Origin: Candidatus Atribacteria bacterium
GTDB taxonomy: Bacteria > Atribacterota > Phoenicimicrobiia > Phoenicimicrobiales > Phoenicimicrobiaceae
Length of the DNA stretch: 31,748 nt
Reading direction: 5' to 3'
NCBI GenBank assembly: GCA_003513845.1
Contig: DOTB01000008.1
Location: forward strand, 1-31,748
The notes under the pieces are model-generated. The model worked only from the letters and a program-made list of their open reading frames with translations, was not told the DNA's origin and did not search any database. Position numbers and translations under genes: made by a program. Shown here in pieces: positions 8,027 to 29,721 of this stretch (position 1 is its first letter; every line of letters begins with the position of its first letter).

Positions 8027-9919
8027 ATGAAAGGTTTTTTTGGGAGGTATTTGGATATAAACCTAAATGATGAAGTTGTAAGGGATTTTAAGATACCGTA
8101 TGATTGGTATAACAAATATTTAGGTGGAAGAGGAATTGGTTTAAGAATCCTTTTACAAGAGTTAAAGGGAAATGAAAATCCTTTGAGTCCTGAAAACATT
8201 ATTGTGTTCGCAACAGGGCCATTACAAGGCGCTGGTCTTGCAGGAACAGGCCGTCATGCTGTAATTACTAAATCCCCAAAAACTGGAAGTCTTAGCGATA
8301 GTTACGCTGGCGGGTATTGGGGGTATGAACTAGGCAAATCAGGATATGATGGGATTATTGTTAGAGGGAAAGCAGTTAAGCCTGTGTACTTATCCCTTAT
8401 GTATGGTGAATTAGTAATTCATAGTGCTGAAGATCTTTGGGGATTAGATGTAGGTGAAACTGATTATAAATTAAAAGAGAAATATAAAGGAGGTCGAGTC
8501 TTATGTATAGGACCTGCCGGAGAGCATCTTGTTAAATTTGCATGTATTATGAATGATATCACTAGGGCTGCTGGAAGGCCTGGTTTTGGTGCAGTGATGG
8601 GTAGTAAAAATTTAAAAGCAATAGTAGTTAGGGGAAAAAGTAAAAGATTAGTATATGATATTGAAATGTTAAAAGAAACTAAGAAGAAAATTAATCAAGA
8701 ATTATTGAATAATCCAGGTATTCAGGAATTCGGTAGATTAGGTTCTTCAGCTGCTGTTGTTGGGCTTAACGAAGAAGGAATTCTTCCAACTAAGAATTTT
8801 CAAGAAGGTGTTTTTAATGAAGCTGAAAAAATTGATGGAGCAAGTTGTATTTTTAAAAATATATTAGTAGGGCGCGAAACTTGTGCAGGTTGCCCAATTC
8901 GTTGTAAAAGGGTTGTAAAAGGTAATTATAAAGGAATAGAAATTGAAGAAAAATATGGTGGCCCAGAGTATGAAACATTGGCTGCGTTTGGTTCCAACTG
9001 TTTGAATGCAGATTTATATTCAATTAGCTTAGCAAATCAGCTTTGTAATAAATATGGTTTGGATACTATAAGCACTGGAGTTACTATTGCTTTTGCAATG
9101 GAAGCTAGCGAAAAAGGACTGATAAAAGAATCTATTAAGTGGGGAGACCCCGATGTTATTGTAAAATTAATAGAAGATATTGCATTTAGAAGAGGATTGG
9201 GAAACATATTATCTGAAGGAATAGATTTAGTTGCTTCAACGATTGGTGCAGATTTTGCTATGCATATTAAAGGTCAAGAGCTTCCAATGCATGATCCCCG
9301 AGGAAAAAAAGCTCTTGCTATAAGCTATGCAACAACTCCCCGTGGGGCTCAACATATGGAGGCAATGCATGATGATGGAGCTGAAGGACTGGGCAAGTAT
9401 GGTACTCCAGAAATTGGTATTTTTGGACCAGTAAAAAGAATGTCGTGGAATAAAAAACCACGTTTTTGTAAAATACATCAGGATTTAGCGTCTTTTGCAA
9501 ACTCAATTATTGCATGTGATTATGTTGGATTCGACGCTGCTTTATGTTCAGGTTATAACCCGTATCCACGTTTTCGTGAAGCTATCTATGCAACTACAGG
9601 TTTAGAAATTGGAGTACCAGAGATGCTACTTATTGGTGAACGAAATTTCAATATGCTCAAAATAGCCGCGGCTTGGGTAGGTTACACACAAAAAGATGAC
9701 GATTTACCAAACCGCTTAAAAGAAGCACTTCCTTCAGGTAATAGTGCTGGCGACCCAATACCAAATAGTATTCTTAAAAAAGCAATAGATGAATATTACG
9801 AACTCAGAGGATGGGATAAATATGGACCTACTGATGATAAATTGACTCAACTTAATATGCAAGAATTTATAGGAACTATCAAAAGAGATGATAAAGGAAA
9901 TAATAAAAAATTATTATAA
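8027..9919 (+). CDS. Aldehyde ferredoxin oxidoreductase family protein (tungsten/molybdenum bis-pterin)
   Basis: A 630-residue AOR-family enzyme, the usual length. The N-terminal domain has GGRGIG at 33-38, the ATGPLQGAG and TGRHAV segments, and the AGRPGFGAVMGSKNLKAI signature at 182-199. The 4Fe-4S cluster ligands are C286, C289 and C293 (CAGCPIRC) with the fourth probably C497 (IIACDYVGF). GGPEYETLAAFGSN at 311-324 is the typical middle motif. Such enzymes oxidise aldehydes to acids, reducing ferredoxin, in the cytoplasm of anaerobes. It starts at ATG 8027 behind GGGGGAG. It heads the AT-rich catabolic block, so a sugar-derived aldehyde (glyceraldehyde, its phosphate, or an aldose) is a likely substrate; this is inference. 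Confidence 0.93.
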   Translation: MKGFFGRYLDINLNDEVVRDFKIPYDWYNKYLGGRGIGLRILLQELKGNENPLSPENIIVFATGPLQGAGLAGTGRHAVITKSPKTGSLSDSYAGGYWGYELGKSGYDGIIVRGKAVKPVYLSLMYGELVIHSAEDLWGLDVGETDYKLKEKYKGGRVLCIGPAGEHLVKFACIMNDITRAAGRPGFGAVMGSKNLKAIVVRGKSKRLVYDIEMLKETKKKINQELLNNPGIQEFGRLGSSAAVVGLNEEGILPTKNFQEGVFNEAEKIDGASCIFKNILVGRETCAGCPIRCKRVVKGNYKGIEIEEKYGGPEYETLAAFGSNCLNADLYSISLANQLCNKYGLDTISTGVTIAFAMEASEKGLIKESIKWGDPDVIVKLIEDIAFRRGLGNILSEGIDLVASTIGADFAMHIKGQELPMHDPRGKKALAISYATTPRGAQHMEAMHDDGAEGLGKYGTPEIGIFGPVKRMSWNKKPRFCKIHQDLASFANSIIACDYVGFDAALCSGYNPYPRFREAIYATTGLEIGVPEMLLIGERNFNMLKIAAAWVGYTQKDDDLPNRLKEALPSGNSAGDPIPNSILKKAIDEYYELRGWDKYGPTDDKLTQLNMQEFIGTIKRDDKGNNKKLL

Positions 9920-10011
9920 AATAATAAGATAATTAATTTAGTAAAAATGATATTTATAATAATACCTATCATAAAAATAAAAGATATAAGAAAAGAAAGG
10001 AAGAAATATTA

Positions 10012-10470
10012 ATGAGTTTTGAAGATAAATTAAAAGAAATTGGGATAAAAATATCCGAAGTTTCTAAACCGGCTGCTGAATACATCCCCGCAAAGAAAGT
10101 TGATAATTTGGTTTATTGTTCTGGTCAAGGTCCTTTGAAAGACGGTAAATTTATTTACATTGGTAGAGTGGGTGATGAGGTAAGCTTAGATGATGGCTAT
10201 GAGGCTGCAAAAATATGTGCAATTAATTGTTTAGCAGCAATAAAATCAGTAATTGGCTCTCTAGATGAAATAGAGGAAATCATTAGTCTCAGGGGTTTTG
10301 TAAATAGTAATTTAGATTTTTATAGGCAACCTGAAGTGATTAATGATGCTTCTGAATTAATGGTTTAAATATTTTGGGTAAAGGGGAAACATGTAAGATG
10401 TGCTTTAGGCACTTCAGTTTTGCCAAGTAATATTCCTGTTGAATTAGAAATGGTGGTTAAGATTAAGTAG
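10012..10470 (+). pseudogene. RidA-family enamine/imine deaminase interrupted by an in-frame stop
   Basis: The first 118 codons encode a RidA/YjgF-type protein and end at TAA 10366-10368. The same frame then continues without any shift for 33 codons, reading IFWVKGKHVRCALG and so on, to TAG 10468-10470. This tail aligns residue for residue with the tail of the intact paralogue at 27952 (EVFSEKGKHSRCALS), with the stop exactly replacing that protein's Glu. One change, GAA to TAA, explains it. The lost part contains the conserved Arg that binds the imino acid in RidA proteins, so the short product should be inactive. It follows the AOR gene by 92 bases. A sequencing error or very recent mutation is possible because the tail is otherwise well preserved. 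Confidence 0.85.
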
Positions 10471-10675: not shown

Positions 10676-11698
10676 ATGAGAAAGAAATTGGCTATTAGTT
10701 TATTAAGTATATCATTAATAATGTTATTAGGGATAAGTGTAATTGCTTCTGATAAAGGAGTTGTGTACTATCTCAGTCCAAATCAATTTGATGAAATGCA
10801 AACAGCTGCTTCAAATATGATTAAAGATGCTGTGGAAGGAGCTGGCTATACCTGTCGGATAATGGTAGCAGGCAATGAGGATTCTAATTTACAAATGAAT
10901 CAATTGGAAAATGCAATTACTCAAGATCCTGTGGCTATTATTGTTGCTGCAGTTGATGGTAATGCAATTATTCCTGGAGTGGAACAGGCAAAAGCAGCAG
11001 GGATTCCAGTGATTGCGTTTGACAGAGTAATTAGTGGAACAAAAGTTGATTTCACTTCTGTTGCCGGTTGCAAAAGAATCGGTATCATGGCAGCACATAA
11101 AATAGCAGAACTTCTTGAAGAAAAGTACGGAGAACCAAAAGGCAAAATTTTAGATATTATGGGCGATCCCGGGGATTCGTACACTGTCTTAATCGAAGAA
11201 GGATTGAGAGAAACCATGGAAAGTGAGTATCCAAATATTGAAATTGAAACAAAAATAGCTTATGGATGGGAAGCTACAACTGCAGCAAATATTGCTGATG
11301 ATTATTTACTAGCAAATCCTGATACAGATTTAATTTTCCCACATTCAGACCACATGGCAGTATCTATTGCTTCAGTTCTTCAAACCAAGGGTTTAAATAA
11401 GAATGATATTTTGCTAGTATCAACTGCCGGTATGCCCAGTGGACTTCAATTAATTCGTGATGGTTGGATGAAGGCAACTGTAGAGCAGCCTGTAAGCGCT
11501 CAAGCAGAGGGAATTGCTATGTTTTTAGATGATATCATTCAAGGGAATGAGATAAAACTAGGTTCCTATGAAGTATTAGGTATACCAGCTGAAATTATTG
11601 AGCAGCCTTATGGTCTTGAACTAAGAATTTCTGGATCTGTAATTACTGCAGAAAATGTTGATGACCCTTTATTCTGGGGAAATCAGGTTGGAGAATAA
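10676..11698 (+). CDS. Sugar ABC transporter substrate-binding protein (RbsB-like, CUT2)
   Basis: A 340-residue periplasmic binding protein of the Peripla_BP_4 type. A signal peptide covers about residues 1-25 (MRKK, hydrophobic core LLSISLIMLLGISVIA, then SD). No lipobox cysteine is present, so the mature protein may be soluble in a periplasm rather than a lipoprotein, which suits a diderm cell. Family marks include SPNQFDEMQTAASNMI, VAAVDGNAIIPGVEQAKAAGIPVIAFDR with the sugar-contacting DR, and MGDPGDSY. It starts at ATG 10676 behind AAAGGAG. It forms one transporter with the permease at 11822 and the ATPase at 15364. The ligand is unknown; the family takes ribose, xylose, galactose, inositol or autoinducer-2. 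Confidence 0.92.
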   Translation: MRKKLAISLLSISLIMLLGISVIASDKGVVYYLSPNQFDEMQTAASNMIKDAVEGAGYTCRIMVAGNEDSNLQMNQLENAITQDPVAIIVAAVDGNAIIPGVEQAKAAGIPVIAFDRVISGTKVDFTSVAGCKRIGIMAAHKIAELLEEKYGEPKGKILDIMGDPGDSYTVLIEEGLRETMESEYPNIEIETKIAYGWEATTAANIADDYLLANPDTDLIFPHSDHMAVSIASVLQTKGLNKNDILLVSTAGMPSGLQLIRDGWMKATVEQPVSAQAEGIAMFLDDIIQGNEIKLGSYEVLGIPAEIIEQPYGLELRISGSVITAENVDDPLFWGNQVGE

Positions 11699-11708
11699 TT
11701 TTTAAAAT

Positions 11709-11746
11709 AATTTTGAACAGGCCTAGATATGGGCCTGTTCAAAATT
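11709..11746 (+). terminator. Strong 15-bp hairpin between binding-protein and permease genes
   Basis: Positions 11709-11723 and 11732-11746 are perfectly complementary over 15 bp (core GAACAGGCC/GGCCTGTTC), with an 8-base loop TAGATATG. A and T tracts flank the stem. It begins 11 bases after the binding-protein stop. Such hairpins in sugar ABC operons act as partial terminators or 3'-end stabilisers, giving more binding protein than permease. The upstream in-frame ATG at 11729 lies inside this hairpin and is therefore not a credible permease start. Confidence 0.8.
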
Positions 11747-11821
11747 TATTTCCACATTTTAGCTAATATTTTTTTTAATCTAATCTTGATCTATTTAAAA
11801 ATACAGAAAGGCACAATAAAT

Positions 11822-12805
11822 ATGGCAATAGTTAAGAGAAAAGAAATACTAAGATGGATATTAGATAATATTGCATGGTTTATTTTATTAGCAATGCTTA
11901 TTATATTTTCGTTTACTGTGAGAGGTTTTGCTCAATGGCCTATATACAGAAATATACTTTACCATTCTGTTTTTATCGGAATATTGGCGATAGCAGAAGC
12001 TATTTGTATTTTGAGCAAAGAAATGGATTTATCTGTAGAATCAGTACTTGCATTATCTGCTGTCGTAACAGCTTATTTAGCCGGAATAGGTCCTGATGCT
12101 TCAGGACTGCATCTTAATGCTCCTATTACTTTAATTATCGTACTTTTAATGGGCGCAGGAATAGGACTTTTTAATAGTTATTTTATTGTAAAAATGAAAA
12201 TTAGTTCTTTTATTGTTACTCTTGCTGGATATTTAATCTTTCGAGCGGTGGGTCTTGTAATTACAAAGGGACATGGTGTGGTTAATATCAGTAAAGATAT
12301 TGTTGCTATAGCTAGAACTAATATTGGGCCTGTGCCGTTGATGATTATTATACTCATTTTCATGTATGTCATATTTTCTTTATTCTTATCAAGAACTCAA
12401 TTTGGTAGATATATTTATTTTGTAGGTGATAATAGAGAGGCAAGTTACAATGCAGGGATTAAAGTAGACAGAGTTTTAGTTATTGTTTTTATAATTAGTG
12501 GTATTTTATCTGCTTTAGCGGGGTGGCTGCTTGCTGCCAGGACAAATGGCTCTTCACCATCTTTGGGTCAAGGAATATTGTTTGAAGCTATGGCTGCAGT
12601 AGTAATTGGAGGAGTAAGTTTACAAGGCGGAATTGGAAGATTAAGTGGTGTTTTTGCAGGTGCTATAATACTGAGCTGTATATCTACGGTTGTTAGTATT
12701 GTCGGCATTAATCCTTATTATATGAATATCATACGAGGAGGAATGATTATTGTTGCAGTTATTCTTGATGCGATCATAAGAAAGATTCGTCCTAGGTTAA
12801 TATAA
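11822..12805 (+). CDS. Sugar ABC transporter permease (BPD_transp_2, RbsC-like)
   Basis: An inner-membrane permease of 327 residues from ATG 11822. Hydrophobic segments recur along the protein, including IAWFILLAMLIIFSF, VFIGILAIAEAICIL, LILFEAM and the C-terminal MIIVAVILDAI region, consistent with about 8-10 helices. The family motif appears as SKEMDLSVESVLALSA, and the conserved cytoplasmic loop as AAVVIGGVSLQGGIGRLSG. The start at 11822 is chosen over the in-frame ATG 11729 because it has AGAAAGG 10 bases upstream and gives a normal N-terminus MAIVKRKEILRW. The 11729 start would fall in the hairpin after the preceding gene. It is one of the three parts of the CUT2 transporter. Confidence 0.92.
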   Translation: MAIVKRKEILRWILDNIAWFILLAMLIIFSFTVRGFAQWPIYRNILYHSVFIGILAIAEAICILSKEMDLSVESVLALSAVVTAYLAGIGPDASGLHLNAPITLIIVLLMGAGIGLFNSYFIVKMKISSFIVTLAGYLIFRAVGLVITKGHGVVNISKDIVAIARTNIGPVPLMIIILIFMYVIFSLFLSRTQFGRYIYFVGDNREASYNAGIKVDRVLVIVFIISGILSALAGWLLAARTNGSSPSLGQGILFEAMAAVVIGGVSLQGGIGRLSGVFAGAIILSCISTVVSIVGINPYYMNIIRGGMIIVAVILDAIIRKIRPRLI

Positions 12806-12840
12806 GAAATTAATATTACACAAAAAGGTGTGGATATTTT

Positions 12841-13281
12841 ATGAATATTGAAATATTAGAAATTAATAAAAGTACTTTTAAAGCTTTTGGAAAAGTCCTT
12901 GTTCCATCTACTAGGGCAAATCCTGAGGTTTATGAGGATAACATTTTTAAATTTTACGTGACATTCAAAGAAAAAGCCAATAGTTGGCAAATTGGATATT
13001 TAGATCAAATTGGGAAAAAAGTTGAAAAGCTGGAATGCCACCCCAATACTTCAGAAGTGTTTATTCCAATTTTTGGGGAGGCTGTTATGCTTCTTTCTAT
13101 TGATCCTCCCAAAGATATTTCTGCATTTAAATTAAAAAAGCCTATTGTTATTAATAAGGGAGTATGGCATGCAGTGATTTCTTTAACAGAAAGCTCAAAA
13201 ATGATTATTGTGGAAAGTTCAGATGTTGTAGATAAATATTATGAACTTGGTAGGCCAATTAATAATAATAACTTGATATAA
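12841..13281 (+). CDS. Ureidoglycolate-lyase-like cupin protein
   Basis: A small, 146-residue cytoplasmic protein resembling the ureidoglycolate hydrolase/lyase family (cupin fold). Visible family features are FKAFGKVLVPS near the N-terminus, ECHPNTSEVFIPIFGEAVMLL in the middle (cupin metal-site region) and INKGVWHAVISL toward the end. No allantoin or purine genes are nearby, so a true ureidoglycolate role is unlikely. In sugar loci such proteins more probably act as sugar isomerases, lyases or binding accessories. It lies 35 bases after the permease behind AAAGGTG and 46 bases before the next start, so it is in the transporter operon. The fold is fairly sure; the reaction is unknown. Confidence 0.7.
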   Translation: MNIEILEINKSTFKAFGKVLVPSTRANPEVYEDNIFKFYVTFKEKANSWQIGYLDQIGKKVEKLECHPNTSEVFIPIFGEAVMLLSIDPPKDISAFKLKKPIVINKGVWHAVISLTESSKMIIVESSDVVDKYYELGRPINNNNLI

Positions 13282-13327
13282 TTTGATGAATTGGAATAAT
13301 AAAATTATTTACAGAAAGGGTGTTTCT

Positions 13328-14380
13328 ATGAATAAAAACAATAAAACAATGAAGGCAGTTGTTTGGGATGGGCCATTTAAAGTTTCTTTAAAAGAAGTTG
13401 AAAAACCTTCTCCTGAAAAAAAAGAAGTTTTAATAAAAACCAAAGCAGTCGGTATTTGCGGGAGTGATCTGGAAATATATGATGGGCGCTTCAAACAAAG
13501 TACCCCCCCTCTTATTATTGGACATGAAGGAGGTGGAATAGTAGAAGACGTGGGAGATAGTGTAACTAAAGTAAATAAAGGTGACAGGGTTATTGTAGAA
13601 TGCTTACTCTATTGTGGTGAATGTGAAAATTGTAGAAAAGGTCTATATAATTTATGTTTTAATCATAAGGTAATTGGGATGATAGGGCATGATGGTGAGT
13701 ATGCTGAATATTTTGTTGCTCCAGAGCAAAATGTGCATAATCTTCCTGAAAATATTAGCTGGGAAGAGGCAGGTCTTATTGATACATTAGCTGGTCCTGT
13801 TGCAGGAATTGAAAAGACAAATATTCATTTAGGGCAAACTGTTGTAGTGTATGGTCCGGGACCAGCAGGATTGTTTTTTTGTAAACTAGCAAAATTAAGA
13901 GGGGCCGGTAAAACCTATCTTGTAGGAACACGTGACAGTAGACTTGCTTTAGGAGAAAAATACGGTGCTGATGTGATACTCAATGCTAAAAGAGATAATG
14001 TGGAGGAATACATATTAAAAGACACTAATGGAAGAGGTGTAGATTTAGTAATTGAAGCCGCAGGCTCACACGAGGCCCTTAATAGTGGTATGCAAGTCAT
14101 AAAAAAGGGTGGAGAATTACTGATTTACGGAGTATTTGGAGGAGGGCCGGTTCCGGTTGATATACAGCCAATCCAGATAAATGAACTTGTTATTAAGGGC
14201 TTAAACGGTTCACCTTTTAAATACCCTGATACTATTAATCTAATCAGTAAAAAAATGATTAATGTTAAGGATGTTATATCTCATACATTTAAGATTGAAC
14301 AACTTCCTGACTTGTTTTCAAGTGGTTTTATTGCCAACAGAAAGGAAAACTACATGAAGGGGGTCGTTCTTTTCGATTAA
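13328..14380 (+). CDS. Zinc-dependent sugar/polyol dehydrogenase (MDR family)
   Basis: A 350-residue NAD(P)-dependent dehydrogenase from ATG 13328. Catalytic zinc ligands are C44 (GICGSD) and H66-E67 (GHEG); structural zinc cysteines are C96, C99, C102 and C110; the Rossmann motif is YGPGPAG at 175-181. The chosen start has AGAAAGGG 7 bases upstream and yields MNKNNKTMKAVVWDG; the in-frame TTG 13283 has no ribosome site. It resembles sorbitol, threonine or galactitol dehydrogenases. A lactonase gene follows at once, so oxidation of an imported aldose at C1 to a lactone, or of a polyol to a ketose, are the two likely roles. It is diverged from the IolM-like enzyme at 588 and is not a recent copy of it. 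Confidence 0.9.
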   Translation: MNKNNKTMKAVVWDGPFKVSLKEVEKPSPEKKEVLIKTKAVGICGSDLEIYDGRFKQSTPPLIIGHEGGGIVEDVGDSVTKVNKGDRVIVECLLYCGECENCRKGLYNLCFNHKVIGMIGHDGEYAEYFVAPEQNVHNLPENISWEEAGLIDTLAGPVAGIEKTNIHLGQTVVVYGPGPAGLFFCKLAKLRGAGKTYLVGTRDSRLALGEKYGADVILNAKRDNVEEYILKDTNGRGVDLVIEAAGSHEALNSGMQVIKKGGELLIYGVFGGGPVPVDIQPIQINELVIKGLNGSPFKYPDTINLISKKMINVKDVISHTFKIEQLPDLFSSGFIANRKENYMKGVVLFD

Positions 14381-14429
14381 TCTAAAAACAGCGAAAGTTT
14401 ATTCTATTTTTAAAAGTTGGAGGATTTTT

Positions 14430-15305
14430 ATGTCAAAGCCTTTAGTTGTAAGCAATATCAAATGCCATATAGGAGAAAATCCAATTTGGCATCCTCTAGA
14501 AAAACAAATATATTGGCTTGATATACCAATAGGTGTAATTTATGGATACAATCCAAAAAATGGCATAGTTAAAAAAATATTTGAAGGTGATTGTGCTATA
14601 GGCGGTTTTACAATCCAAGAAGATAGTTCTTTGCTCCTTTTTATGGAGAAAGGAGCAGTAAAAATATGGCGAAATAGTAAGTTGACTAATGTAATAGATG
14701 AGATCTCCATCTTAAAAGATACAAGATTCAATGATGTTATTGCAGATCCAGCAGGGAGAGTTTTTTGTGGTACAATGCCGGATAAAAATGGGTCTGCATA
14801 TTTGTTTCTTCTTGATATAAATGGAGAAATTAAGCTAGTTTTAGATAATGTGGGACTTTCAAATGGAATGGGCTTTACTCCGGATAAACAGCAAATGTAT
14901 TTTACTGATTCTAAAAAAAGGAAAATAAGTATATTCAATTATAATAAAAAAAGTGGATCCTTGAGTAATCAAAGAACTTTTTTAGAAGTAAAGGAAAAAA
15001 ATCCTTATTTGGTTCCTGATGGATTGACAGTTGATTCTGAAGGATATGTTTGGAGTGCACAGTGGAATGGTGGATGTGTAAAAAGATATAGTCCAAAAGG
15101 TAAGGAGGTTATGAAAATCATTTTACCCACTGAAAAAATTACTTCTTTAACTTTTGCTGGAGAAAATTATCAAGATATATATATTACAAGCGCATTAGGA
15201 GAAGAAGGTACTATTGAAAATGAAGAGAGTGAAGCCGGTGCCTTATTTAATGTTAAAACTGAGATTGCAGGTTTGCCGGAAAATATGTCTAAAATTTTTG
15301 TTTAG
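14430..15305 (+). CDS. SMP-30/gluconolactonase-family lactonase
   Basis: A six-bladed beta-propeller lactonase of 291 residues. The four metal ligands of the family are visible: E16 (IGENPIWHP), N101 (RFNDVIADPAGRVFCGTM), N145 (GLSNGMGF) and D197 (VPDGLTVDSEG). These enzymes hydrolyse sugar lactones (for example glucono- or arabinolactone) to free aldonic acids, usually right after a sugar dehydrogenase, which is exactly the gene before it. The start ATG 14430 has GGAGGA just upstream. No signal peptide is seen, so it acts in the cytoplasm. Family and reaction type are firm; which lactone is not known. Confidence 0.92.
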   Translation: MSKPLVVSNIKCHIGENPIWHPLEKQIYWLDIPIGVIYGYNPKNGIVKKIFEGDCAIGGFTIQEDSSLLLFMEKGAVKIWRNSKLTNVIDEISILKDTRFNDVIADPAGRVFCGTMPDKNGSAYLFLLDINGEIKLVLDNVGLSNGMGFTPDKQQMYFTDSKKRKISIFNYNKKSGSLSNQRTFLEVKEKNPYLVPDGLTVDSEGYVWSAQWNGGCVKRYSPKGKEVMKIILPTEKITSLTFAGENYQDIYITSALGEEGTIENEESEAGALFNVKTEIAGLPENMSKIFV

Positions 15306-15363
15306 AAAAATCATAGTCAATTAAAATTTTAAAGTAAGAAAAGAATAATTGATTATAGGAAGG

Positions 15364-16152
15364 ATGAGAATATTGGTAAACGATAGCTTTAAAAATAAAG
15401 AAAATCGACCTATTTTAACCGTAAAGAATATTAGTAAACGATTTGGCAATGTACAGGCTTTAAAAAATGTCAGCATGGAAGTATGCAAAGGCGATATTGT
15501 CGGTTTATTAGGAGATAATGGGGCTGGTAAGTCTACTCTTATAAAAATAATATCGGGGAATTTTTCTGCAGATGAAGGAGAAATATTTTTAGAGGGTAAG
15601 AAAGTACATTTTAATTCACCTTCAGAAGCTCGTGCCGCAGGGATAGAGACAGTTTATCAAAATAGTCCCGTTTGTATTAATGCAGCAGTATATGAAAATT
15701 TTTTTATTGGCAGAGAAATAGTGAATAATTATCTTGGTATTAAATTTGTAAAAAACAAAGAAATGCAAAAAAGCACCTTAGATGCTTTACAAAATATTGG
15801 TATTTCTATACCATCTGAGAAAGCTGAAATTGGCTTATTATCTGGAGGGGAAAGGCAAGCAATTATTTTGGGAAGATTTTTTCATTGGGGAGGGAAAGTG
15901 GCTTTGCTTGATGAGCCATTTGCAGCTCTAGGTGTTGCTGAATCAAGAAAAGCTCTAAAACTTATTCATAATGTTAGTCAAAAAGGGCTTCCTATTATTC
16001 TAGTTACTCATAATATAGAATATGCTTTTCAAGTAATGAATAAATATGTTGTTCTTAGGCATGGCGAAGTTGTTGGTGTTGGGGAAAAGAAAGATGTATC
16101 AGTTGATGATGTTGTATCCATGATAACCGGAGCAATCGAAATTAAGGATTAA
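15364..16152 (+). CDS. Sugar ABC transporter ATP-binding protein, single ATPase domain
   Basis: An ABC ATPase of about 262 residues. Walker A is GDNGAGKST at 50-58, Q-loop VYQN at 97-100, signature LSGGERQ at 159-165, Walker B VALLDEP at 179-185 and the H-loop VTHN at 214-217, all intact. Most CUT2 sugar importers have a fused double ATPase of about 500 residues (RbsA type); this one has a single domain and would work as a homodimer. It lies about 2.6 kb after its permease, with three enzyme genes between. The start is uncertain: ATG 15364 is used here, but TTG 15373 has a better placed AAGGA, and TTG 15349 is also in frame. Confidence 0.92.
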   Translation: MRILVNDSFKNKENRPILTVKNISKRFGNVQALKNVSMEVCKGDIVGLLGDNGAGKSTLIKIISGNFSADEGEIFLEGKKVHFNSPSEARAAGIETVYQNSPVCINAAVYENFFIGREIVNNYLGIKFVKNKEMQKSTLDALQNIGISIPSEKAEIGLLSGGERQAIILGRFFHWGGKVALLDEPFAALGVAESRKALKLIHNVSQKGLPIILVTHNIEYAFQVMNKYVVLRHGEVVGVGEKKDVSVDDVVSMITGAIEIKD

Positions 16153-16178
16153 TTAATAAACGAATAGGAGAGTTTAAA

Positions 16179-17504
16179 ATGAAAAAAATAAAAGTCGGAG
16201 TTATTACTTTAGCTTCACCTAGAGAAAGGGTCGACCTGGCAAGACAATTTCATTTTAAGGCAATTTCTTCTTTGAAGAAGAATAATCTTGATTTATATTA
16301 TCGTGATGAGTTAATTTATGAAACAAACGAATGTATTGCTCAAGCCAGGGAATTTAAAAAAAAGGGTGCTTGTGCAATTTTATTACTCATGGGGACCTGG
16401 GTAGATTCACCAACTGTTGTTGATACTATTAGGGAGATACAAATTCCTTTTGCCATTTGGGCTGAAGATAATCCTGCTTCTTTTTCTCTGACTGCTGGCG
16501 GTATTGTTCATGGTTCATTAGATGAACTGGGTTTAGAGCATAAATTTTTTTATGGCTCAACCAATTCAGCGAATTTATTGGGGCAAATAGTTACTTATAT
16601 CAAAGCCTGTTCAATTATGAAAAATTTAGATAATCAAAAGTTATGCGTAGTTGGTGGACGAGTTCCAGGCATGTATACAACTATGGCTGATATTATTCAG
16701 ATAAAAAAAATATTTGGGATTGAAATAGAGCATATAGACTCTCTACAAATATACTTAGAAGCTGTTAATGCCCCCGATAAAGAGATTGAAGAATTAAAAA
16801 AAGTATATCTACCACAGTTTGGAAAAGTTAAGCCAGAAAAGCAGGTTATTGATAAATCTTTAAGACTTTATTTTGCACTAAAAAAATTATTGACAAATAA
16901 AAACTATAAAATTGCAGCTATTAAATGTATGGATGAAATGATAAATCATTATTCTTCTTTTTGTCTGGCAAATTCTCTTCTTAATGATGAAGGATATACA
17001 ATTTCTTGTGAAGGTGATATTTATGGAGCTATAAGTATGATGGTTTTAAGGTTAGCATCTGGAAATATTTCCCTCTTTGGGGATATAAATCATTTGGATT
17101 ATCAAGAGAATATGTTAAGAATTGTTAATTGTGGTTCCATGCCTTCTTTAATGTCTGAAAATAGAAAAGAGGTTGATCTGGCTTGCCAATATAGTTATTT
17201 AAGTAAAGCGGGTGGAGTTACAACTGTTTTTTCAGTAAAAGATTCACCAGTGACTGGTGCAAGATTATTTAGAGTTAAAGGAAATCTAGGTGTGTTTGTA
17301 TTTAGTGGCAATACAGTTAAACAACCAAAAGAAAGGTTAGGAGAATCAAGAGAACGTTGGCCACAAGCATTTGTTAAATTTGGATGTAATGCAGAAAAAT
17401 TAGTTCAAAATTTTCGCTCCAATCATATGCATATATGTTTTGGCGATTGTCTGAATATTGTTAAAGAATTTTGCAGTTTAAAGGATATTAGTTGTATTTC
17501 ATAA
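16179..17504 (+). CDS. L-fucose/L-arabinose isomerase-like protein
   Basis: A 441-residue protein of the fucose/arabinose isomerase superfamily. N-terminal region: IKVGVITLASPRER, with an ILLLMGTWVDSPTV segment like the family's LLxxGxW block. Centre: VVGGRVPGMYTT. C-terminal region: SCEGDIYGAIS at 276-286 (E278), FGDINHLD at 300-307, and a late NHMHICFGD. These acidic and His positions correspond to the metal site of aldose-ketose isomerases. It is shorter than FucI (about 590 residues), so it belongs to the smaller, largely uncharacterised relatives. It follows the ABC ATPase by 26 bases with TAGGAG before ATG. It presumably isomerises an imported aldose or a derivative; the substrate is unknown. 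Confidence 0.82.
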   Translation: MKKIKVGVITLASPRERVDLARQFHFKAISSLKKNNLDLYYRDELIYETNECIAQAREFKKKGACAILLLMGTWVDSPTVVDTIREIQIPFAIWAEDNPASFSLTAGGIVHGSLDELGLEHKFFYGSTNSANLLGQIVTYIKACSIMKNLDNQKLCVVGGRVPGMYTTMADIIQIKKIFGIEIEHIDSLQIYLEAVNAPDKEIEELKKVYLPQFGKVKPEKQVIDKSLRLYFALKKLLTNKNYKIAAIKCMDEMINHYSSFCLANSLLNDEGYTISCEGDIYGAISMMVLRLASGNISLFGDINHLDYQENMLRIVNCGSMPSLMSENRKEVDLACQYSYLSKAGGVTTVFSVKDSPVTGARLFRVKGNLGVFVFSGNTVKQPKERLGESRERWPQAFVKFGCNAEKLVQNFRSNHMHICFGDCLNIVKEFCSLKDISCIS

Positions 17505-17524
17505 AAAGGTGAAAGGAGAAACGA

Positions 17525-18655
17525 ATGGTCACATTTGAAAGTTTAGGAGTTAAGAAAGTTATTAATGCAGCAGGAAATAATTCACGATTGGGTAGTTCAA
17601 CTCTTAGTCCAGAAGTTTTGAATGCAATGAATGAAGCCTCGAAGATTTATGTTAACATGAACGAATTACAACTTCGTTGCGGTGAGTATATTTCAAAAAT
17701 TACTGGAGCAGATGGTGGTTTGGTAACATCAGGAGCAGCTGGTAGCCTTTTGCTTGCAGCATCAGCATGTATTACCGGTACTAATGTAGCCTTAATATTG
17801 GAAATGCCAAAACCAGCTATCGGTAAAGAAATAATTGTACAAAAAGGGCATAGGACACCTTATGACCAGGCTATTACAATATCTGGAGCTCGATTAGTAG
17901 AAGTCGGTATCCCTCACCAAACTTATGTAGAGCAGATTGAAAATGCCATAAATGAAAATACAGTTGCATTTTTATATACATTTGGTGAAACTGTAAATAG
18001 AAGTGGAGAAGTTTCTCTAAATGATGTTATGCAAATTTCAAAAAAATATAAAATACCAACAATTGTTGATGGCTCGTTGATAAATTATCCTTTTACAAGA
18101 ATCAAGGACTGTATAAAGATGGGTGTAGATTTGTTAGTAACAAGTGGAGGAAAGCACATTTTTGGCCCTTCTTGTACTGGTTTTATTTGTGGGAAAAAAG
18201 AATTAGTGGAGGCATCTCGTTTGCAAGCTTTCCCAAATTATGGTATCGGAAGGGTAATGAAAATCGGCAAAGAAGAAATTATTGGATTTATGACTGCTTT
18301 AGAAATCTATCTTAAAAGAGATTCCCAAAAAGAACATGCAGAATGGGAAGATAAGATTAATTATTTGGTATCTGAATTAAATAAATTTCCATACTTAAAA
18401 ACAATAAAAGCTGAATACGATGAAGTAAACCGACCAGTTCCTAGAACTCAAATACTGATTGACGAAAAAAGAATAAAACACGATGTTTATGAAATAGTTT
18501 CATATTTTAAGGAAAATAACCCTCCAATATGGTTTCAAGAATTTAGTTTACATAAAAGTATTATTTTATTAAATCCGGTTTGTCTTGCTGATGGAGAAGA
18601 GGAAATTATTGTAAAGGAATTTCAAAATCTGTGGAATTTATGGAACTTATTTTAA
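17525..18655 (+). CDS. SelA/DgaE-like PLP-dependent lyase, copy 1
   Basis: A 376-residue fold-type I PLP enzyme of the SelA-like group, which includes D-glucosaminate-6-phosphate ammonia-lyase (DgaE). N-terminus: LGVKKVINAAGN, the group's hallmark. The cofactor phosphate site is TSGAAGSL at 68-75, the PLP aspartate D182 (IVDGS), and the Schiff-base lysine K210 in TSGGKHIFGPSCTG. True selenocysteine synthases are about 460 residues with an added N-terminal domain, missing here. A role in eliminating ammonia from an amino-sugar acid fits the lactonase upstream and the RidA genes nearby, but this is inferred. It starts at ATG 17525 behind AAAGGAG. A paralogue lies at 22265. Confidence 0.85.
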   Translation: MVTFESLGVKKVINAAGNNSRLGSSTLSPEVLNAMNEASKIYVNMNELQLRCGEYISKITGADGGLVTSGAAGSLLLAASACITGTNVALILEMPKPAIGKEIIVQKGHRTPYDQAITISGARLVEVGIPHQTYVEQIENAINENTVAFLYTFGETVNRSGEVSLNDVMQISKKYKIPTIVDGSLINYPFTRIKDCIKMGVDLLVTSGGKHIFGPSCTGFICGKKELVEASRLQAFPNYGIGRVMKIGKEEIIGFMTALEIYLKRDSQKEHAEWEDKINYLVSELNKFPYLKTIKAEYDEVNRPVPRTQILIDEKRIKHDVYEIVSYFKENNPPIWFQEFSLHKSIILLNPVCLADGEEEIIVKEFQNLWNLWNLF

Positions 18656-18717
18656 AATATCAAGTATATTGAGAATTTATCAGTATTCTACTTATTTTTT
18701 TAAAAGGATAATAGAAA

Positions 18718-19935
18718 ATGAGTTTGTCAACAAAGAAAAATGCAATTGTGGGTCAATTAGGTGGCCCGACTTCAGTAGTTAATTCCAGCCTTTCTGGCAT
18801 TATTCAAGAAGCAATAAAGTCAAAAAAAATAAATAATATACTTGGAATGAGAGATGGGATTTTAGGGTTAATGACAGATAGAATAGTTGATTTAGAAAAG
18901 ATAAATTCAAAAGATTTATATAGATTGCAACATACACCTTCATCAATTTTAGGTTCTTGTAGGTATATTTTAAAAAAAGAAGAATTTCCCCATCTATTAA
19001 GGCAGTTTGAAAGATATAATATCGGATATTTTTTCCTTATTGGGGGAAATGGTACCATGGAAACCGGCCGCCAAATAGAGCAATATTGTAAAAAAAACAG
19101 TTATCAAATAAACATAATTGGGATACCGAAAACAGTAGATAATGATCTTTGTAACACTGATCATGCTCCAGGCTTTCCTTCTGCGGCAAAATATATTTGT
19201 CTTTCTGTATTACAGGGAGGAAGACTTGCCCGAGATATGCAAAGTGTAGATAAATATGTTATTCTGCAGACAGTAGGGAGAAGTTCAGGATGGTTAGCTG
19301 CCTCATCAGTATTAGCAAAAAGAAAGAAGGTGGATGCCCCTCATCTTATTTATTTACCAGAAAGGCCTCTATCACGTAAATTATTCCTATCCGATGTGAA
19401 AGAGTGTATTAAAAAATATGGGTGGGTTTATATTGTATGCGGCGAAGGTATTCGTTGGGAAGATAAAAGTTTTATCGCTAGTCATTATTCACAGAATAAT
19501 AATGAAATTGAATATGGTGCAATGGGCGGGGGCAGTGCAGCGCTTAATTTACATAAAATTATTTATCAAGAAACAAATTACAGAGGAGAATTTCAAATTA
19601 CAGAATCCTTATCAATGTGCGCCATAGATAGAGTAAGTAATGTTGATGTTGAGGAAGCTTATGCTTGTGGTGTTAGAGCAGTTGAATTAGCTGAAGAGGG
19701 AATTTCAGGGGTAATGATTTCAATTATTCGTGCTAATTCTAAACCTTATAAAATAACATTAAGTTTTGTACCTTTTGAAGAAGTAGCCCTTAAAATTAAG
19801 CCAATGGATGATAAGTACATTAACAAGCAAGGCAATTTTGTAACTGATGAATATATTAAATATATAAAACCTCTTGTTGGTAAAATTCCCAAATATTATG
19901 AATTAAATTTTAAAAAAGCATATATTTGTATATAA
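18718..19935 (+). CDS. 6-phosphofructokinase-family (PfkA fold) sugar phosphotransferase
   Basis: A 405-residue PFK-fold protein. N-terminal nucleotide or PPi loop is GQLGGPTSVVNSSL at 12-25. The donor-site motif is IGGNGTMETG at 108-117, where ATP-dependent enzymes have GGDG and PPi-dependent ones GGDD. The catalytic motif is PKTVDNDL at 137-144, whose lysine is typical of PPi-dependent enzymes. GRSSGWLA follows. The mixture (Gly as in ATP type, Lys as in PPi type, Asn replacing the usual Asp) leaves the phosphate donor open. It sits in a sugar catabolic locus far from glycolysis genes, so it may phosphorylate another sugar phosphate or ketose, perhaps the product of the isomerase at 16179. 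Fold is certain; substrate is not. Confidence 0.88.
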   Translation: MSLSTKKNAIVGQLGGPTSVVNSSLSGIIQEAIKSKKINNILGMRDGILGLMTDRIVDLEKINSKDLYRLQHTPSSILGSCRYILKKEEFPHLLRQFERYNIGYFFLIGGNGTMETGRQIEQYCKKNSYQINIIGIPKTVDNDLCNTDHAPGFPSAAKYICLSVLQGGRLARDMQSVDKYVILQTVGRSSGWLAASSVLAKRKKVDAPHLIYLPERPLSRKLFLSDVKECIKKYGWVYIVCGEGIRWEDKSFIASHYSQNNNEIEYGAMGGGSAALNLHKIIYQETNYRGEFQITESLSMCAIDRVSNVDVEEAYACGVRAVELAEEGISGVMISIIRANSKPYKITLSFVPFEEVALKIKPMDDKYINKQGNFVTDEYIKYIKPLVGKIPKYYELNFKKAYICI

Positions 19936-20029: not shown

Positions 20030-20836
20030 TTTGAAATAAAAGAAATTAAGGATTGTTTAAAAAACAAGAAATATGATTTATTGGCAGTCGTACATGGTGA
20101 AACTTCTACGGGAATGCTAAATCATTTGGAAGAGTTATTACTAATATGTCAAAAAGAAGATATTTTATTTATAGTAGATGCAGTATCAATATTGGGGGAG
20201 TAAAGATATCTGTTGACAAACTAGGCATTGATTTTTTATATCAGCAAGCCAAAAGACCTTGGGTTCAATTCCAGGGTTATCTACAATTTCTATCAGTTTG
20301 AAGGGGTGGAAAGGATGGCATTGGAGTCTGATATTCCTGGCTGGTATCTTAATTTGAGAACATGGCAGAGGTATGAAAAAGAATGGGGTGATTGGCATCC
20401 GTTTCCTATAACTTTGCCCGTTCATTTATTTTATGCTTTAAATAAAGCCTTTGATATAATTTTAGAAGAAGGATTAAAACAAAGATGGACTAGACATAAA
20501 AAAGTTGCTGGTATACTTTGTGATTACTTAGAAGATGCAGGAATATCTTTATTAGTTACAGATAAAGATTGTCTTTTACCAACAGTGACGTCAGCAGTTT
20601 TACCAAGTCCAATGAAATCTGAAGATTTACAGAAATATATGCAAGCAAGATATGGAATAATAATTGCCGGAGGAGTAAGGCTATTAAGAAAGCGCGTTTT
20701 TAGAGTTGGACATATAGCTTATTCTGCTAATGAATTTCTAATTAATAGAGTCATATCAGGTATTGATTGTTTTATGAAGAATAATCGTTTAAGTAATTTC
20801 ATAGAAACAGTAGTCATAACTTGCACTTTAACTTAA
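20030..20836 (+). pseudogene. Decayed class V aminotransferase, truncated and frameshifted copy of the gene at 25687
   Basis: Homology to the intact aminotransferase begins at its residue 112 (FEIKEI against FEIQEI); the first 110 or so codons are absent. The frame runs to an ILG segment and then shifts near 20196-20202, giving a TAA at once. It resumes as VKISVDKLGIDF in another frame, shifts again around 20235, where ISASQKTLGSIPGLST can be read, and once more near 20310 before MALESDIPGW. From there to the end it is clean and almost identical to the intact gene: over 49 residues from WYLNLRTW, three differ. The PLP-lysine region falls in the shifted part. It cannot encode a working enzyme. 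The gap 19936-20029 shows nothing recognisable. Confidence 0.9.
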
Positions 20837-22264: not shown

Positions 22265-23401
22265 ATGGTATTTATGGCAAGCTATAATGATTTAGGAGTA
22301 AGAAAAATAATTAACGCCGCGGGAACTTATACGAAATATGGCGGTTCCTTGATTTCTTCTGAGGTAATTAAGGCAATGGAAGCTGCTTCGAGTACTTTTG
22401 TAGATGTTGATGAATTATTACAAAAATCTGGCGAATACATTGCAAAATGTCTTAATATCGAGTCAGCATTGATTACAGCGGGAGCAGCGGCTGGGCTAAC
22501 ATTATCAGCGGCAGCATGCATGGCAGGCTCTAACCCAGATTTTATAAAATCACTGCCTAATACAGAAAATATGAAAAATGAAATTATTATTATGCGTTGT
22601 CACCGAAATCCGTATGATAATGCAATGATAATGGCTGGTGCAAAATTTGTGGAAATTGGTAATGCCATTGAAACTCACCTTTGGGAATTAGACTCTGCTA
22701 TTGGTGAAAAAACAGCTGCAGTAGCCTTTTTTGTTCAATCAGAGATGCTAGAAGCCTCTCTTTCATTAAAGGAAGTAATTAACATAGCACATGCAAAAAG
22801 TATTAGAGTTATAGTTGACGCGGCAGCTGAATTGCCACCAATTGATAATTTAAATAGATTTGCTAAAATGGGTGCGGATATTACTGTATTTAGCGGTGGA
22901 AAAGATATACGTGGTCCACAGTCTTCTGGGTTAATGGTAGGGAAAAAAGATATTATCAATATTTGTCGTTTACATGGATATCCACATCATGCAATTGGTA
23001 GACCAATGAAATTAGATAAGGAAACGATTATGGGTTTTGTAAGAGCAATGGAGTTATATTTAAATGAAGATCACCAGAAGAGAGTAAAAAAATGGGAAGA
23101 ACAAGTTGGGCATATTGTTAATGGATTAAAAGGTATTTCACATATTCAAGTTTTTCAGGGATACCCTACTCAACCCTTAACACAGCCTGCTACGATACCT
23201 CGAGTCTATGTTACTTTTGATGAAAAATCTTTGGGAATGACAAAAGAAGACATTGCCCTAGAGTTATATGAAGGTAATCCACGTATTGCTGTTGTAGTTG
23301 AAAAAAAATACCTTACTCTTAATCCTCATATGCTTGCGAGTGGGGAGGAAGATATAATAATTGAGAGAATAAAAAAGATAATTATAAGGAATAATTCTTA
23401 A
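22265..23401 (+). CDS. SelA/DgaE-like PLP-dependent lyase, copy 2
   Basis: A 378-residue paralogue of the enzyme at 17525. The same layout is seen: DLGVRKIINAAGTYTKYGG at the N-terminus, TAGAAAGL at 71-78, D185 in IVDAAAE and the PLP lysine K213 in FSGGKDIRGPQSSG. The two copies agree in the hallmark motifs but differ in most other positions, so they probably use different substrates rather than being a recent duplication. The start ATG 22265 has AAGGAG at 22253-22258; ATG 22274 is a less likely alternative. The 121-base gap before it contains inverted heptamers that may be an operator. It is followed by nagA, which supports amino-sugar chemistry. Confidence 0.85.
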   Translation: MVFMASYNDLGVRKIINAAGTYTKYGGSLISSEVIKAMEAASSTFVDVDELLQKSGEYIAKCLNIESALITAGAAAGLTLSAAACMAGSNPDFIKSLPNTENMKNEIIIMRCHRNPYDNAMIMAGAKFVEIGNAIETHLWELDSAIGEKTAAVAFFVQSEMLEASLSLKEVINIAHAKSIRVIVDAAAELPPIDNLNRFAKMGADITVFSGGKDIRGPQSSGLMVGKKDIINICRLHGYPHHAIGRPMKLDKETIMGFVRAMELYLNEDHQKRVKKWEEQVGHIVNGLKGISHIQVFQGYPTQPLTQPATIPRVYVTFDEKSLGMTKEDIALELYEGNPRIAVVVEKKYLTLNPHMLASGEEDIIIERIKKIIIRNNS

Positions 23402-27559: not shown

Positions 27560-27570
27560 CAACATTTAAT

Positions 27571-27603
27571 CGGTGATATAGGGTATTCACCGCTCCTTTT
27601 TTT
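27571..27603 (+). terminator. Rho-independent terminator after the M20 remnant
   Basis: CGGTGA (27571-27576) and TCACCG (27587-27592) pair perfectly across a 10-base loop. CTCC and a run of seven T (27597-27603) follow. It lies 12 bases after the pseudogene stop and is the clearest intrinsic terminator in the window. Confidence 0.82.
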
Positions 27604-27951
27604 AGTTATATTATGTTAAAACTATAAATTGCATTACTGTCTTGGACATAAGAAGTACTTTGAGCATAGCAAAATTATTAAACACGAGATGATAAAGTTT
27701 GAGAATTGGATTAAGAATTTAATGATATTTTTTGATAGAGTAGTGCTTAAAAACCTGGAATAAGCAGCAAATAAATCTGTAAATTAGATACTTGTGTAGC
27801 CAAAGATAGTCTTAGTGGCCGCCTACTCACTCAATAAATATAGACTATGGAAATTTGTACAAAATATTTATTAAATTTTTACTTAAAAATTTTGCAATAT
27901 CTAAGTTGATTAAGTGTAATAATTTAAAGATTTAAAGAAAGGATAAAAAAA
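27604..27951. other. Gene-free AT-rich stretch before the intact RidA gene
   Basis: No coding potential or RNA gene was recognised in these 348 bases. The only structure seen is a perfect inverted repeat, AAATTTTTA-CT-TAAAAATTT at 27873-27892, followed by a weak promoter-like TTGCAA (27892-27897) and TAATAAT (27917-27923). Since a terminator lies just upstream, a new promoter for ridA and the threonine-synthase-like gene is expected here. Confidence 0.5.
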
Positions 27952-28413: not shown

Positions 28414-28479
28414 TTATAAATAGATAAACAACCAACTCTATTATTTTAGCGTAAGTAAGTTAAGGAGAAATGAAATAAA

Positions 28480-29721
28480 ATGTATGCTAAAAGCCTTAAA
28501 TGTTCAGTCTGTGGCACGGAATACCCTCTAGATTTATATTATACCTGTGAGAAGTGCCATGGGATCCTGATGGTAGATTATGATTATAATAAAATGAAAG
28601 ATAATTTAGACATAGCGATTTTTGGTACTCCTAAGGCTAATCTCTGGCATTATAAGGATTTATTGCCAATTGAGAATGAAGAAAATATCGTTTCAATGAA
28701 TGAAGGTTTAACTCCTCTTTTACAAAATTTGAAAAACCTGAAAAACAAATATAACTTGAAGTCAATCTATATTAAGGACGAAACGAGAAATCCAACTGCT
28801 TCTTTTAAAGATAGACCAACATCAGTTGGGATTTCCAAAGCTTTAGAATTGGGTTATAGAATTGTGACCATAGCTTCATCGGGAAATGGAGCGGCAGCAA
28901 CAGCAGGTTATGCTGCAAAGGCAGGGGTTAAGAGTTATGTTTTTGTACCCGAAAATACTCCGGAAAGTAAGATAAATCAGGTTTTAACATATGGAGCAGA
29001 GATTATAAAAGTAAAAGGTGTTTACAGTAATTCTTATAAATTAGCTTTGGAGGCAAGTAAAAAATTCAATTGGGCAAATCTTACATCGACTTATTTAAAC
29101 CCCTATACCTTGGAAGGAGACAAGACAGTTGCTTATGAGCTTTTTTATCAAATGGAAGGTGAAGTGCCTGATTACATCCTTGTACCAATAGGAGCTGGTC
29201 CACTTCTGTATGGAATATTCAAAGGGTTTAAAGAATTAAATATTCTTGGGCTTTGTAATAAAATACCTGCTATGGTAGGAGTTCAAGCGGAAAAATGTTC
29301 CCCAATAATTAGTGCATACAAGCAGAATAAAAAATATGTAGTTGCGTGGGAAAAGACAGATACCATTGCTTCTGGCATTGCTGATCCATTAATAGGATAC
29401 GATCAAGATGGTACTATGACTCTGGATGCGATTTATAAGACTAATGGAATAGGTGTTGCTGTAAGTGAAAATGAAATAATAAATGCAGTTTATGAATTGG
29501 GAAGTTTGGAAGGAATTTTTGCTGAGCCTGCTGCTGCGGCTGCTTGGGCTGGCTATAAAAAACTGCTCAACGAAGAGAAAATAACTAGAAAAGATAAAAT
29601 TGTTTTAATGATAACTGGTCATGGGCTTAAACAATCAATAACTTCACTAGTTAATGCTAATAAAATACCGGTTATCGAACTCTCCATTGGGCAACTGAAA
29701 AGCAATCTTAATCTACAATAG
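28480..29721 (+). CDS. Threonine-synthase-like PLP-dependent lyase, copy 2
   Basis: A 413-residue fold-type II PLP enzyme related to the one at 20893. It has an N-terminal zinc ribbon with C8, C11, C23 and C26 (two regular CxxC pairs), the PLP lysine K110 in TRNPTASFKDRP, and the phosphate loop ASSGNGAAAT beginning at 132. A late LEGIFAEPAAAAAWAG segment is typical of the family. It starts at ATG 28480 behind TTAAGGAG. The absence of homoserine-pathway genes and the RidA gene directly upstream favour an elimination reaction giving an enamine rather than threonine synthesis. It is the last intact gene before a decayed stretch. Confidence 0.88.
   Translation: MYAKSLKCSVCGTEYPLDLYYTCEKCHGILMVDYDYNKMKDNLDIAIFGTPKANLWHYKDLLPIENEENIVSMNEGLTPLLQNLKNLKNKYNLKSIYIKDETRNPTASFKDRPTSVGISKALELGYRIVTIASSGNGAAATAGYAAKAGVKSYVFVPENTPESKINQVLTYGAEIIKVKGVYSNSYKLALEASKKFNWANLTSTYLNPYTLEGDKTVAYELFYQMEGEVPDYILVPIGAGPLLYGIFKGFKELNILGLCNKIPAMVGVQAEKCSPIISAYKQNKKYVVAWEKTDTIASGIADPLIGYDQDGTMTLDAIYKTNGIGVAVSENEIINAVYELGSLEGIFAEPAAAAAWAGYKKLLNEEKITRKDKIVLMITGHGLKQSITSLVNANKIPVIELSIGQLKSNLNLQ

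What the first reader, a model, noticed from the sequence alone, without database searches (positions are those of the whole stretch)
8027..29721. Candidate undescribed amino-sugar or amino-sugar-acid catabolic system
A CUT2 importer is interleaved with a zinc dehydrogenase, an SMP-30 lactonase and a cupin. Next to it are a fucose-isomerase-like enzyme, a PFK-family kinase, two SelA/DgaE-like PLP enzymes, two threonine-synthase-like PLP enzymes, a class V aminotransferase, RidA proteins, NagA/NagB and an AOR. Dehydrogenase plus lactonase would turn an aldose into an aldonic acid. A DgaE-like lyase acting on a 2-amino aldonic acid would give a 2-keto-3-deoxy acid and ammonia, with RidA clearing the imine. 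KdgK/KdgA or the HpcH/HpaI aldolase just upstream could finish the job. I know of no described pathway with this full set of genes.
Basis: inference. Interest (0 to 1): 0.75.

Follow-up and report, generated by a model that had tools for sequence, protein, structure and literature searches.

The report
Glucosamine/galactosamine oxidation and deamination cassette
[quoted passage not shown] the chemistry is of a known kind but the gene set is unusual and testable.

Summary
The gene list is right, with corrections. Sixteen window genes (IclR, Eda, KdgK, HpaI, Rid, binding protein, permease, cupin, Zn-dehydrogenase, SMP-30 lactonase, ATPase, FucI-like isomerase, SelA1, PFK-like, SelA2, class V aminotransferase) recur in order at 67-87% identity in an Atribacteria MAG of another family; shorter versions occur in Bacillota and Stahlbacteria MAGs. 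AOR, the threonine-synthase-like genes and NagA/NagB are not shared. The binding protein's closest solved relative, Avi_5305 (42-45% identity), is reported to bind D-glucosamine and D-galactosamine through Tyr168; that Tyr is conserved here. Best model: amino sugar -> aminolactone -> 2-aminoaldonate -> (SelA1/SelA2, Rid) 2-keto-3-deoxyaldonate + NH3 -> KdgK/Eda. Both SelA proteins lack the His pair and two of three phosphate-site Arg of DgaE, favouring an unphosphorylated substrate and a released enamine that needs Rid. The isomerase (fold and metal ligands conserved), PFK-like protein, cupin and aminotransferase have no assigned step. The route type is known and was predicted for Natrarchaeobius; the gene set and ammonia-lyases make a new variant. 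All functions are inferred.

The parts
4201..4983 (+). IclR-family regulator (KdgR/BhcR-like), start of the block shared with G014
   Evidence: NCBIfam (best 220.6 bits, below cut-off); 72% to L041
5088..6083 (+). KDPG/KHG aldolase (Eda)
   Evidence: TIGR01182 259.8 bits, cut-off 156; 83% to L041
6104..7132 (+). KDG-type PfkB kinase (KdgK-like)
   Evidence: NF041633 489.4 and NF041332 212.4 bits, both below cut-off; 87% to L041
7154..7942 (+). HpaI/GarL-type pyruvate aldolase
   Evidence: TIGR02311 190.1 bits, below cut-off; 79% to L041
10012..10368 (+). Rid family protein (imine/enamine hydrolase)
   Evidence: PF14588 55.5 bits; 69% to L041
10676..11698 (+). CUT2 solute-binding protein, predicted GlcN/GalN binder
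   Evidence: 4y9t/5br1 5.6e-84; Tyr169 aligns with Tyr168 of Avi_5305
11729..12805 (+). CUT2 permease
   Evidence: PF02653; 84% to L041
12841..13281 (+). AllA-like cupin, role unassigned
   Evidence: PF04115 30.5 bits; 70% to L041, 49% to L043
13283..14380 (+). Zn-dependent MDR dehydrogenase, proposed C1 oxidation of the amino sugar
   Evidence: PF08240/PF00107; 79% to L041 and to L043
14430..15305 (+). SMP-30/gluconolactonase family lactonase
   Evidence: PF08450 210.6 bits; aligns with regucalcin
15349..16152 (+). Single-domain CUT2 ATPase
   Evidence: PF00005; 81% to L041
16179..17504 (+). FucI/AraA-fold isomerase of an uncharacterised family, role unassigned
17525..18655 (+). SelA1, DgaE-related PLP ammonia-lyase lacking His162/163 and Arg332/346
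   Evidence: TIGR01437 250.6 bits, below cut-off 385
18718..19935 (+). PFK-family phosphotransferase; relatives sit next to NagB or SIS genes
22265..23401 (+). SelA2, DgaE-related PLP ammonia-lyase
   Evidence: TIGR01437 238.1 bits, below cut-off; 78% to L041
25687..26781 (+). Class V aminotransferase (AGXT/PhnW type), next to SelA2 in L041
   Evidence: PF00266; 78% to L041
23550..25462 (+). NagA and NagB, local addition not in the L041 cassette
   Evidence: TIGR00221 382 bits, TIGR00502 312 bits, both over cut-off; no hit in L041

Best explanation
A catabolic cassette, probably moving between lineages, for free D-glucosamine and/or D-galactosamine. The CUT2 importer (10676, 11729, 15349) takes up the amino sugar; the Zn-dehydrogenase (13283) oxidises C1 to the aminolactone; the SMP-30 lactonase (14430) opens it to the 2-amino-2-deoxyaldonate; SelA1 and/or SelA2 remove water and ammonia by PLP-dependent beta-elimination on the unphosphorylated acid; Rid (10012) hydrolyses the released enamine/imine to the 2-keto-3-deoxyaldonate; KdgK (6104) phosphorylates it and Eda (5088) gives pyruvate and glyceraldehyde-3-phosphate, or HpaI (7154) splits it directly. 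Shown: genes, conserved cassette, binding-protein relationship and key Tyr, SelA active-site differences, isomerase fold and metal ligands. Inferred: every catalytic step and substrate. Unassigned: FucI-like isomerase, PFK-like protein, cupin, aminotransferase.
Against: Four conserved genes (isomerase, PFK-like, cupin, aminotransferase) have no step. An ordinary aldose-ketose isomerase cannot use a 2-amino sugar. The dehydrogenase is nearest threonine 3-dehydrogenase and IolM models, all below cut-off. Eda/KdgK in the window lie between inositol (IolMNO) and hexuronate (UxaE) genes, so may serve those too; in G021 the Eda-KdgK-HpaI-lactonase set occurs without a SelA hit. SelA-like proteins on two of the plasmids looked at lie in settings with no clear amino-sugar link (Mesorhizobium L092; Rhizobium L093, with peptide-type ABC genes). 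The annotated Rhizobium relatives of the binding protein have no SelA or lactonase nearby. No expression or assay data.
Confidence: 0.55

Rival explanations
1. Phosphorylated variant: the amino sugar is oxidised, the PFK-family protein phosphorylates the 2-aminoaldonate, and SelA1/2 act as DgaE-like enzymes giving KDPG directly.
For: PFK sits between SelA1 and SelA2 in L041; the Natrarchaeobius scheme needs an unknown kinase at this point (PMC12343721); Eda present.
Against: Both SelA proteins lack Arg332 and Arg346 of the docked phosphate site and both His, though Arg301 is kept; a KdgK-like kinase is in the cassette, not needed if KDPG forms directly.
Confidence: 0.15
2. Phosphorylative amino-sugar route: the PFK-family protein phosphorylates free GlcN/GalN, or F6P after NagB, and NagB or a SIS protein deaminates; the SelA branch serves something else.
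For: In 9 of 9 relatives fetched with a 68-74% identical PFK, the next gene downstream is NagB (4) or a SIS protein (5); 7 of 9 have CUT2 genes beside it; NagA/NagB are in the window.
Against: No NagA/NagB in the G014 cassette (a 60% NagB is on another contig); leaves dehydrogenase, lactonase, SelA and Rid unexplained; substrate-site residues of the PFK could not be settled.
Confidence: 0.12
3. The cassette acts on another amine-bearing sugar (3-, 4- or 6-amino, or a ketosamine) that the isomerase can convert; GlcN/GalN binding is incidental.
For: Isomerase is present in the window and in the four loci that define the cassette, with its metal ligands conserved, and such enzymes need a 2-hydroxyl; the Hadesarchaeal locus pairs it with a 54% PFK and a DegT aminotransferase.
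Against: Binding-protein evidence; the Hadesarchaeal protein is only 43% identical and sits with a different transporter.
Confidence: 0.1
4. Unrelated catabolic genes lying together by chance in a decaying region.
For: Two gene remnants (20228, 27043); AOR, PALP genes and NagAB not shared with G014.
Against: 16-gene conserved order between families and matching subsets in loci of two other phyla.
Confidence: 0.08

Closest known systems
D-glucosaminate PTS pathway DgaABCD-DgaE-DgaF of Salmonella (PMC9529869, parts 1 and 2 of 3 read)
   Same: PLP SelA-family ammonia-lyase plus KDPG aldolase turn a 2-aminoaldonate into pyruvate and G3P.
   Different: Here CUT2 import of an amino sugar, proposed oxidation inside the cell, a KdgK-like kinase, no PTS in the cassette; SelA proteins lack the His pair and two of three phosphate-site Arg.
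Predicted GlcN -> glucosaminate -> KDPG scheme of Natrarchaeobius (PMC12343721, passages read)
   Same: Dehydrogenase, DgaE homologue, IclR and RutC/Rid, Entner-Doudoroff ending.
   Different: No CUT2 importer, lactonase, FucI-like isomerase or PFK named in the passages read.
Avi_5305 GlcN/GalN-binding protein (4y9t/5br1; Yadava 2016 not held, seen as a citation)
   Same: 42-45% identity, Tyr168 conserved.
   Different: Two annotated Rhizobium plasmid relatives sit with a ROK regulator and an SDR, not with SelA or a lactonase.
L-fucose / L-arabinose isomerases
   Different: 14% identity; separate family with its own invariant residues.

Membership tests
[quoted passage not shown]
   202/207 vs 600 and 251/238 vs 385 bits
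[quoted passage not shown]
   SelA1 Glu-Thr, SelA2 no His; four of four DgaE-named sequences aligned have His-His
[quoted passage not shown]
   Only Arg301 kept in both
SelA-like fold-I PLP ammonia-lyase | Family match and PLP lysine | tested here: met
   PF03841 67 and 50 bits over 22.8; Lys at aligned chain position 213 in all rows (the paper calls the lysine 217)
Avi_5305-type GlcN/GalN binding proteins | Tyr168 cation-pi residue | tested here: met
   Window Tyr169
Avi_5305-type GlcN/GalN binding proteins | Measured binding of GlcN/GalN | not testable with these tools
   needs protein
FucI/AraA isomerases | Fold | tested here: met
FucI/AraA isomerases | Metal ligands (E. coli FucI E337, D361, H528; that these are the ligands is recalled) | tested here: met
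   Window E278, D302, H416 in two alignment modes; 37, 38 and 38 of 38 rows keep them
FucI/AraA isomerases | Isomerase activity on a sugar | not testable with these tools
   needs protein
Sulfoquinovose isomerase SftI | NF048012 cut-off 700 bits | tested here: not met
   121 bits
PPi-dependent PFK (PRK14072 subfamily) | Model cut-off | tested here: met
   406.8 vs 273 bits
PPi-dependent PFK (PRK14072 subfamily) | F6P 6-phosphate Arg (recalled R252 of E. coli PfkA) | tested here: inconclusive
   two alignment modes disagree
SMP-30 lactonase | Family match over cut-off | tested here: met
   PF08450 210.6 vs 26.3 bits

The most novel reading that the evidence does not exclude
An oxidative, non-phosphorylated Entner-Doudoroff route for free GlcN/GalN with a new class of SelA-fold ammonia-lyases that release a free enamine to an obligatory Rid partner, together with a new FucI-fold enzyme acting on amino sugars (for example a deaminating isomerase giving a ketose and ammonia) and a PFK-fold amino-sugar kinase.
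Probability: 0.15. Interest if true: 0.7.

Novelty: new variant of a known kind. Interest (0 to 1): 0.5.

Why it matters
It would tie an amino-sugar importer, a SelA-type ammonia-lyase lacking DgaE's proton-donor and phosphate-site residues, and a Rid protein into one testable pathway in uncultured anaerobes, giving Rid a physiological partner and a context to an uncharacterised isomerase family (91 of the 120 listed homologues come before identity drops below 51%). [quoted passage not shown]

Tried and rejected
Plain-pentose import was set aside: the next best solved binding proteins score at most 77 bits against 285 for Avi_5305. Sulfoquinovose isomerase: 121 of 700 bits. An early reading that the PFK-like protein has lost the fructose-6-phosphate Arg was withdrawn: two MAFFT modes place different residues there. 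Only the GGNG and QTVGR motifs, which differ from the PDB 3k2q sequence, are stable across the 11 Atribacterota PFKs aligned; the Hadesarchaeal L045 sequence has GGND and QSIGR.

FucI-like protein in plasmids: no match at 1e-40. RecA as a yardstick for transfer failed because the incomplete window genome gave no match. No Rfam hit at gathering thresholds. Promoter-like sites were 96 against a mean of 88.0 in shuffles, uninformative; terminator-like 14 against 9.3. Six annotated plasmid regions around SelA-like relatives or the like were looked at, in mixed settings: polysaccharide lyase 8, a sulfatase and an AGE epimerase in Haloarcula (L091), sulfatases in Natrononativus (L090), RidA in Rhizobium (L093), enolase-family dehydratases and Rid in Natrinema (L094), LysR and ABC genes in Mesorhizobium (L092); so SelA-likeness alone does not fix the substrate (two searches found 234 and 236 plasmid records; five of these regions were opened). 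Paper searches (open-licence PMC only; listings capped, for example 25 of 251 and 25 of 2,442) showed no description of this gene set in what I saw; subscription papers are not covered. Cofactor preference, stereochemistry and GlcN versus GalN were not tested.
Full report
WHAT IS THERE. The window is contig C26 (1-31748) of a 2.1-Mb, 81% complete MAG. The nearest named genome with the same cassette is a Candidatus Atribacteria MAG. Genes 10676-19935 are nine in a row with gaps of 1-62 bp. Two members of the list are remnants: 20228-20836 is the end of a decayed copy of the class V aminotransferase (62% over 269 aa, with in-frame stops), and 27043-27417 matches only the later part of M20 peptidase models.

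CONSERVATION. A profile of 38 isomerase homologues (A1) gave 11 loci in the genome collection. Four of the 11 have isomerases at 56-80% identity (L041-L044), seven at 37-43% (L045-L051). In L041, 16 window genes recur in order: IclR, Eda, KdgK, HpaI, Rid, binding protein, permease, cupin, Zn-dehydrogenase, lactonase, ATPase, isomerase, SelA1, PFK, SelA2, aminotransferase, at 67-87% identity. AOR, the PALP gene at 20893 and NagA/NagB, which lie inside this block in the window, gave no hit there, and L041 has one aminotransferase copy. L042 (3.2 kb) holds part of the ATPase gene, isomerase and SelA1. L043 (Bacillota) holds two binding proteins, permease, cupin, dehydrogenase, lactonase, ATPase, isomerase and a SelA-like gene cut by the contig end (42% to SelA2). 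L044 (Stahlbacteria, 5.3 kb) holds the end of a dehydrogenase, Rid, a PALP enzyme, lactonase, isomerase and ATPase; no SelA is on this contig. So, of five loci counting the window, three hold SelA-like, lactonase and isomerase together and two are short contigs that do not show all three. None of the seven distant loci gave a hit to the lactonase, binding protein or SelA within the stretch held; L045 has a 54% PFK.

DISTRIBUTION. Among 148 relatives the binding protein was found at 1e-30 only in the window genome and G014; SelA1 in 6 of 148, at 79% in G014 and at 37% or less in four others; the lactonase in 5 of 148, at 67-69% in G014 and G021 and 33% or less in two. The isomerase is in 2 of 50 genomes of the phylum at 1e-60, the window genome and G014; one search lists 55 of 148 genomes at 1e-10, but beyond these two the matches are 35% identical or less. 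In a PFK tree the window groups with G014 (support 0.996), although the two genomes belong to different families; the five other PFKs from the window's family lie elsewhere in the tree. This single-gene tree suggests transfer of the cassette. Four longest-contig lengths (31748, the window itself, and 66478, 13505, 13922) are shared between the isomerase and SelA1 protein lists, as expected if the two genes lie on the same contigs.

CHEMISTRY. SelA1 and SelA2 belong to the family that holds DgaE but fall below its cut-offs. In DgaE, His163 is the C3 proton donor, His162 is conserved, and Arg301/332/346 are near the docked phosphate (PMC9529869, parts 1 and 2 of 3 read). In an alignment of 34 sequences (27 of them my choice from the 120 listed), the four database proteins named DgaE keep all five; the 19 SelA1-group rows have Glu at 162, no His at 163 and no Arg at 332 or 346; SelA2 and its G014 copy likewise lack both His and have Val and His at 332 and 346; Arg301 is kept in SelA1 and SelA2. 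The tree separates SelA1, SelA2 and DgaE. H163A DgaE stays active but releases the enamine, which the authors link to RidA-type detoxification. The cassette's Rid gene fits this, and SelA-like genes have Rid neighbours in G017 (SelA2 62%, Rid 62%), Rhizobium and Natrinema. L043 and L044 carry PLP enzymes of two other families next to the same core, a BhcC/D-serine-dehydratase-like protein and a CuyA/D-cysteine desulfhydrase-like protein, both below their model cut-offs. I infer that an ammonia- or group-releasing PLP elimination is the conserved need.

COMPARISON. The route type is known: DgaE/DgaF in Salmonella and the predicted GlcN to glucosaminate to KDPG scheme of Natrarchaeobius with IclR and RutC; Cupriavidus genomes are noted for a glucosaminate deaminase and KDG kinase (PMC2842291, passage read) and a similar cluster in strain H16 (PMC3734047, passage read). 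What differs is the importer, the dehydrogenase-lactonase pair, the modified ammonia-lyases, and the isomerase and PFK. I rate it a new variant of a known kind.

LIMITS. Everything is sequence inference. The binding-protein link rests on 42-45% identity and one residue described in a review. Eda and KdgK in the window lie between inositol genes (IolM, IolN, IolO) and a UxaE gene, so they may serve several routes; in G014 they stand directly before the cassette, and in G021 Eda-KdgK-HpaI-lactonase stands with another CUT2 transporter and no SelA hit.

Noticed in passing
window 588-3933: IolM, IolN and IolO, the Thermotoga-type inositol pathway (origin recalled), all above NCBIfam cut-offs, in a MAG of the Atribacteria group.
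   Followed up: no
window 30419-31748: A UxaC-like C-terminal stretch (22.1 bits, below cut-off) followed by UxaE tagaturonate epimerase running off the contig end: hexuronate genes that could share Eda/KdgK with the inositol genes.
   Followed up: partly
window 20228-20836 and upstream to about 19980: Decayed second copy of the class V aminotransferase of 25687, with in-frame stops.
   Followed up: yes
L067-L075: PFK-family gene followed in all nine loci by NagB or a SIS-domain protein, in seven with CUT2 genes and in five with an uncharacterised protein of about 416 aa; a second amino-sugar cluster of this phylum.
   Followed up: partly
L045 9989-18888: Hadesarchaeal locus with a 43% isomerase, 54% PFK, DegT aminotransferase, MocA-type oxidoreductase, Zn-dehydrogenase and sugar ABC transporter: a possible amino-sugar locus in archaea.
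   Followed up: partly
L076 (G021): Eda, KdgK, HpaI and lactonase with a different CUT2 transporter and an enolase-family dehydratase, no SelA hit: perhaps the same ending for a plain aldose.
   Followed up: partly
L091 (Haloarcula plasmid): SelA-like gene near a polysaccharide lyase family 8 gene, a sulfatase and an AGE epimerase, suggesting a glycosaminoglycan amino-sugar role.
   Followed up: no
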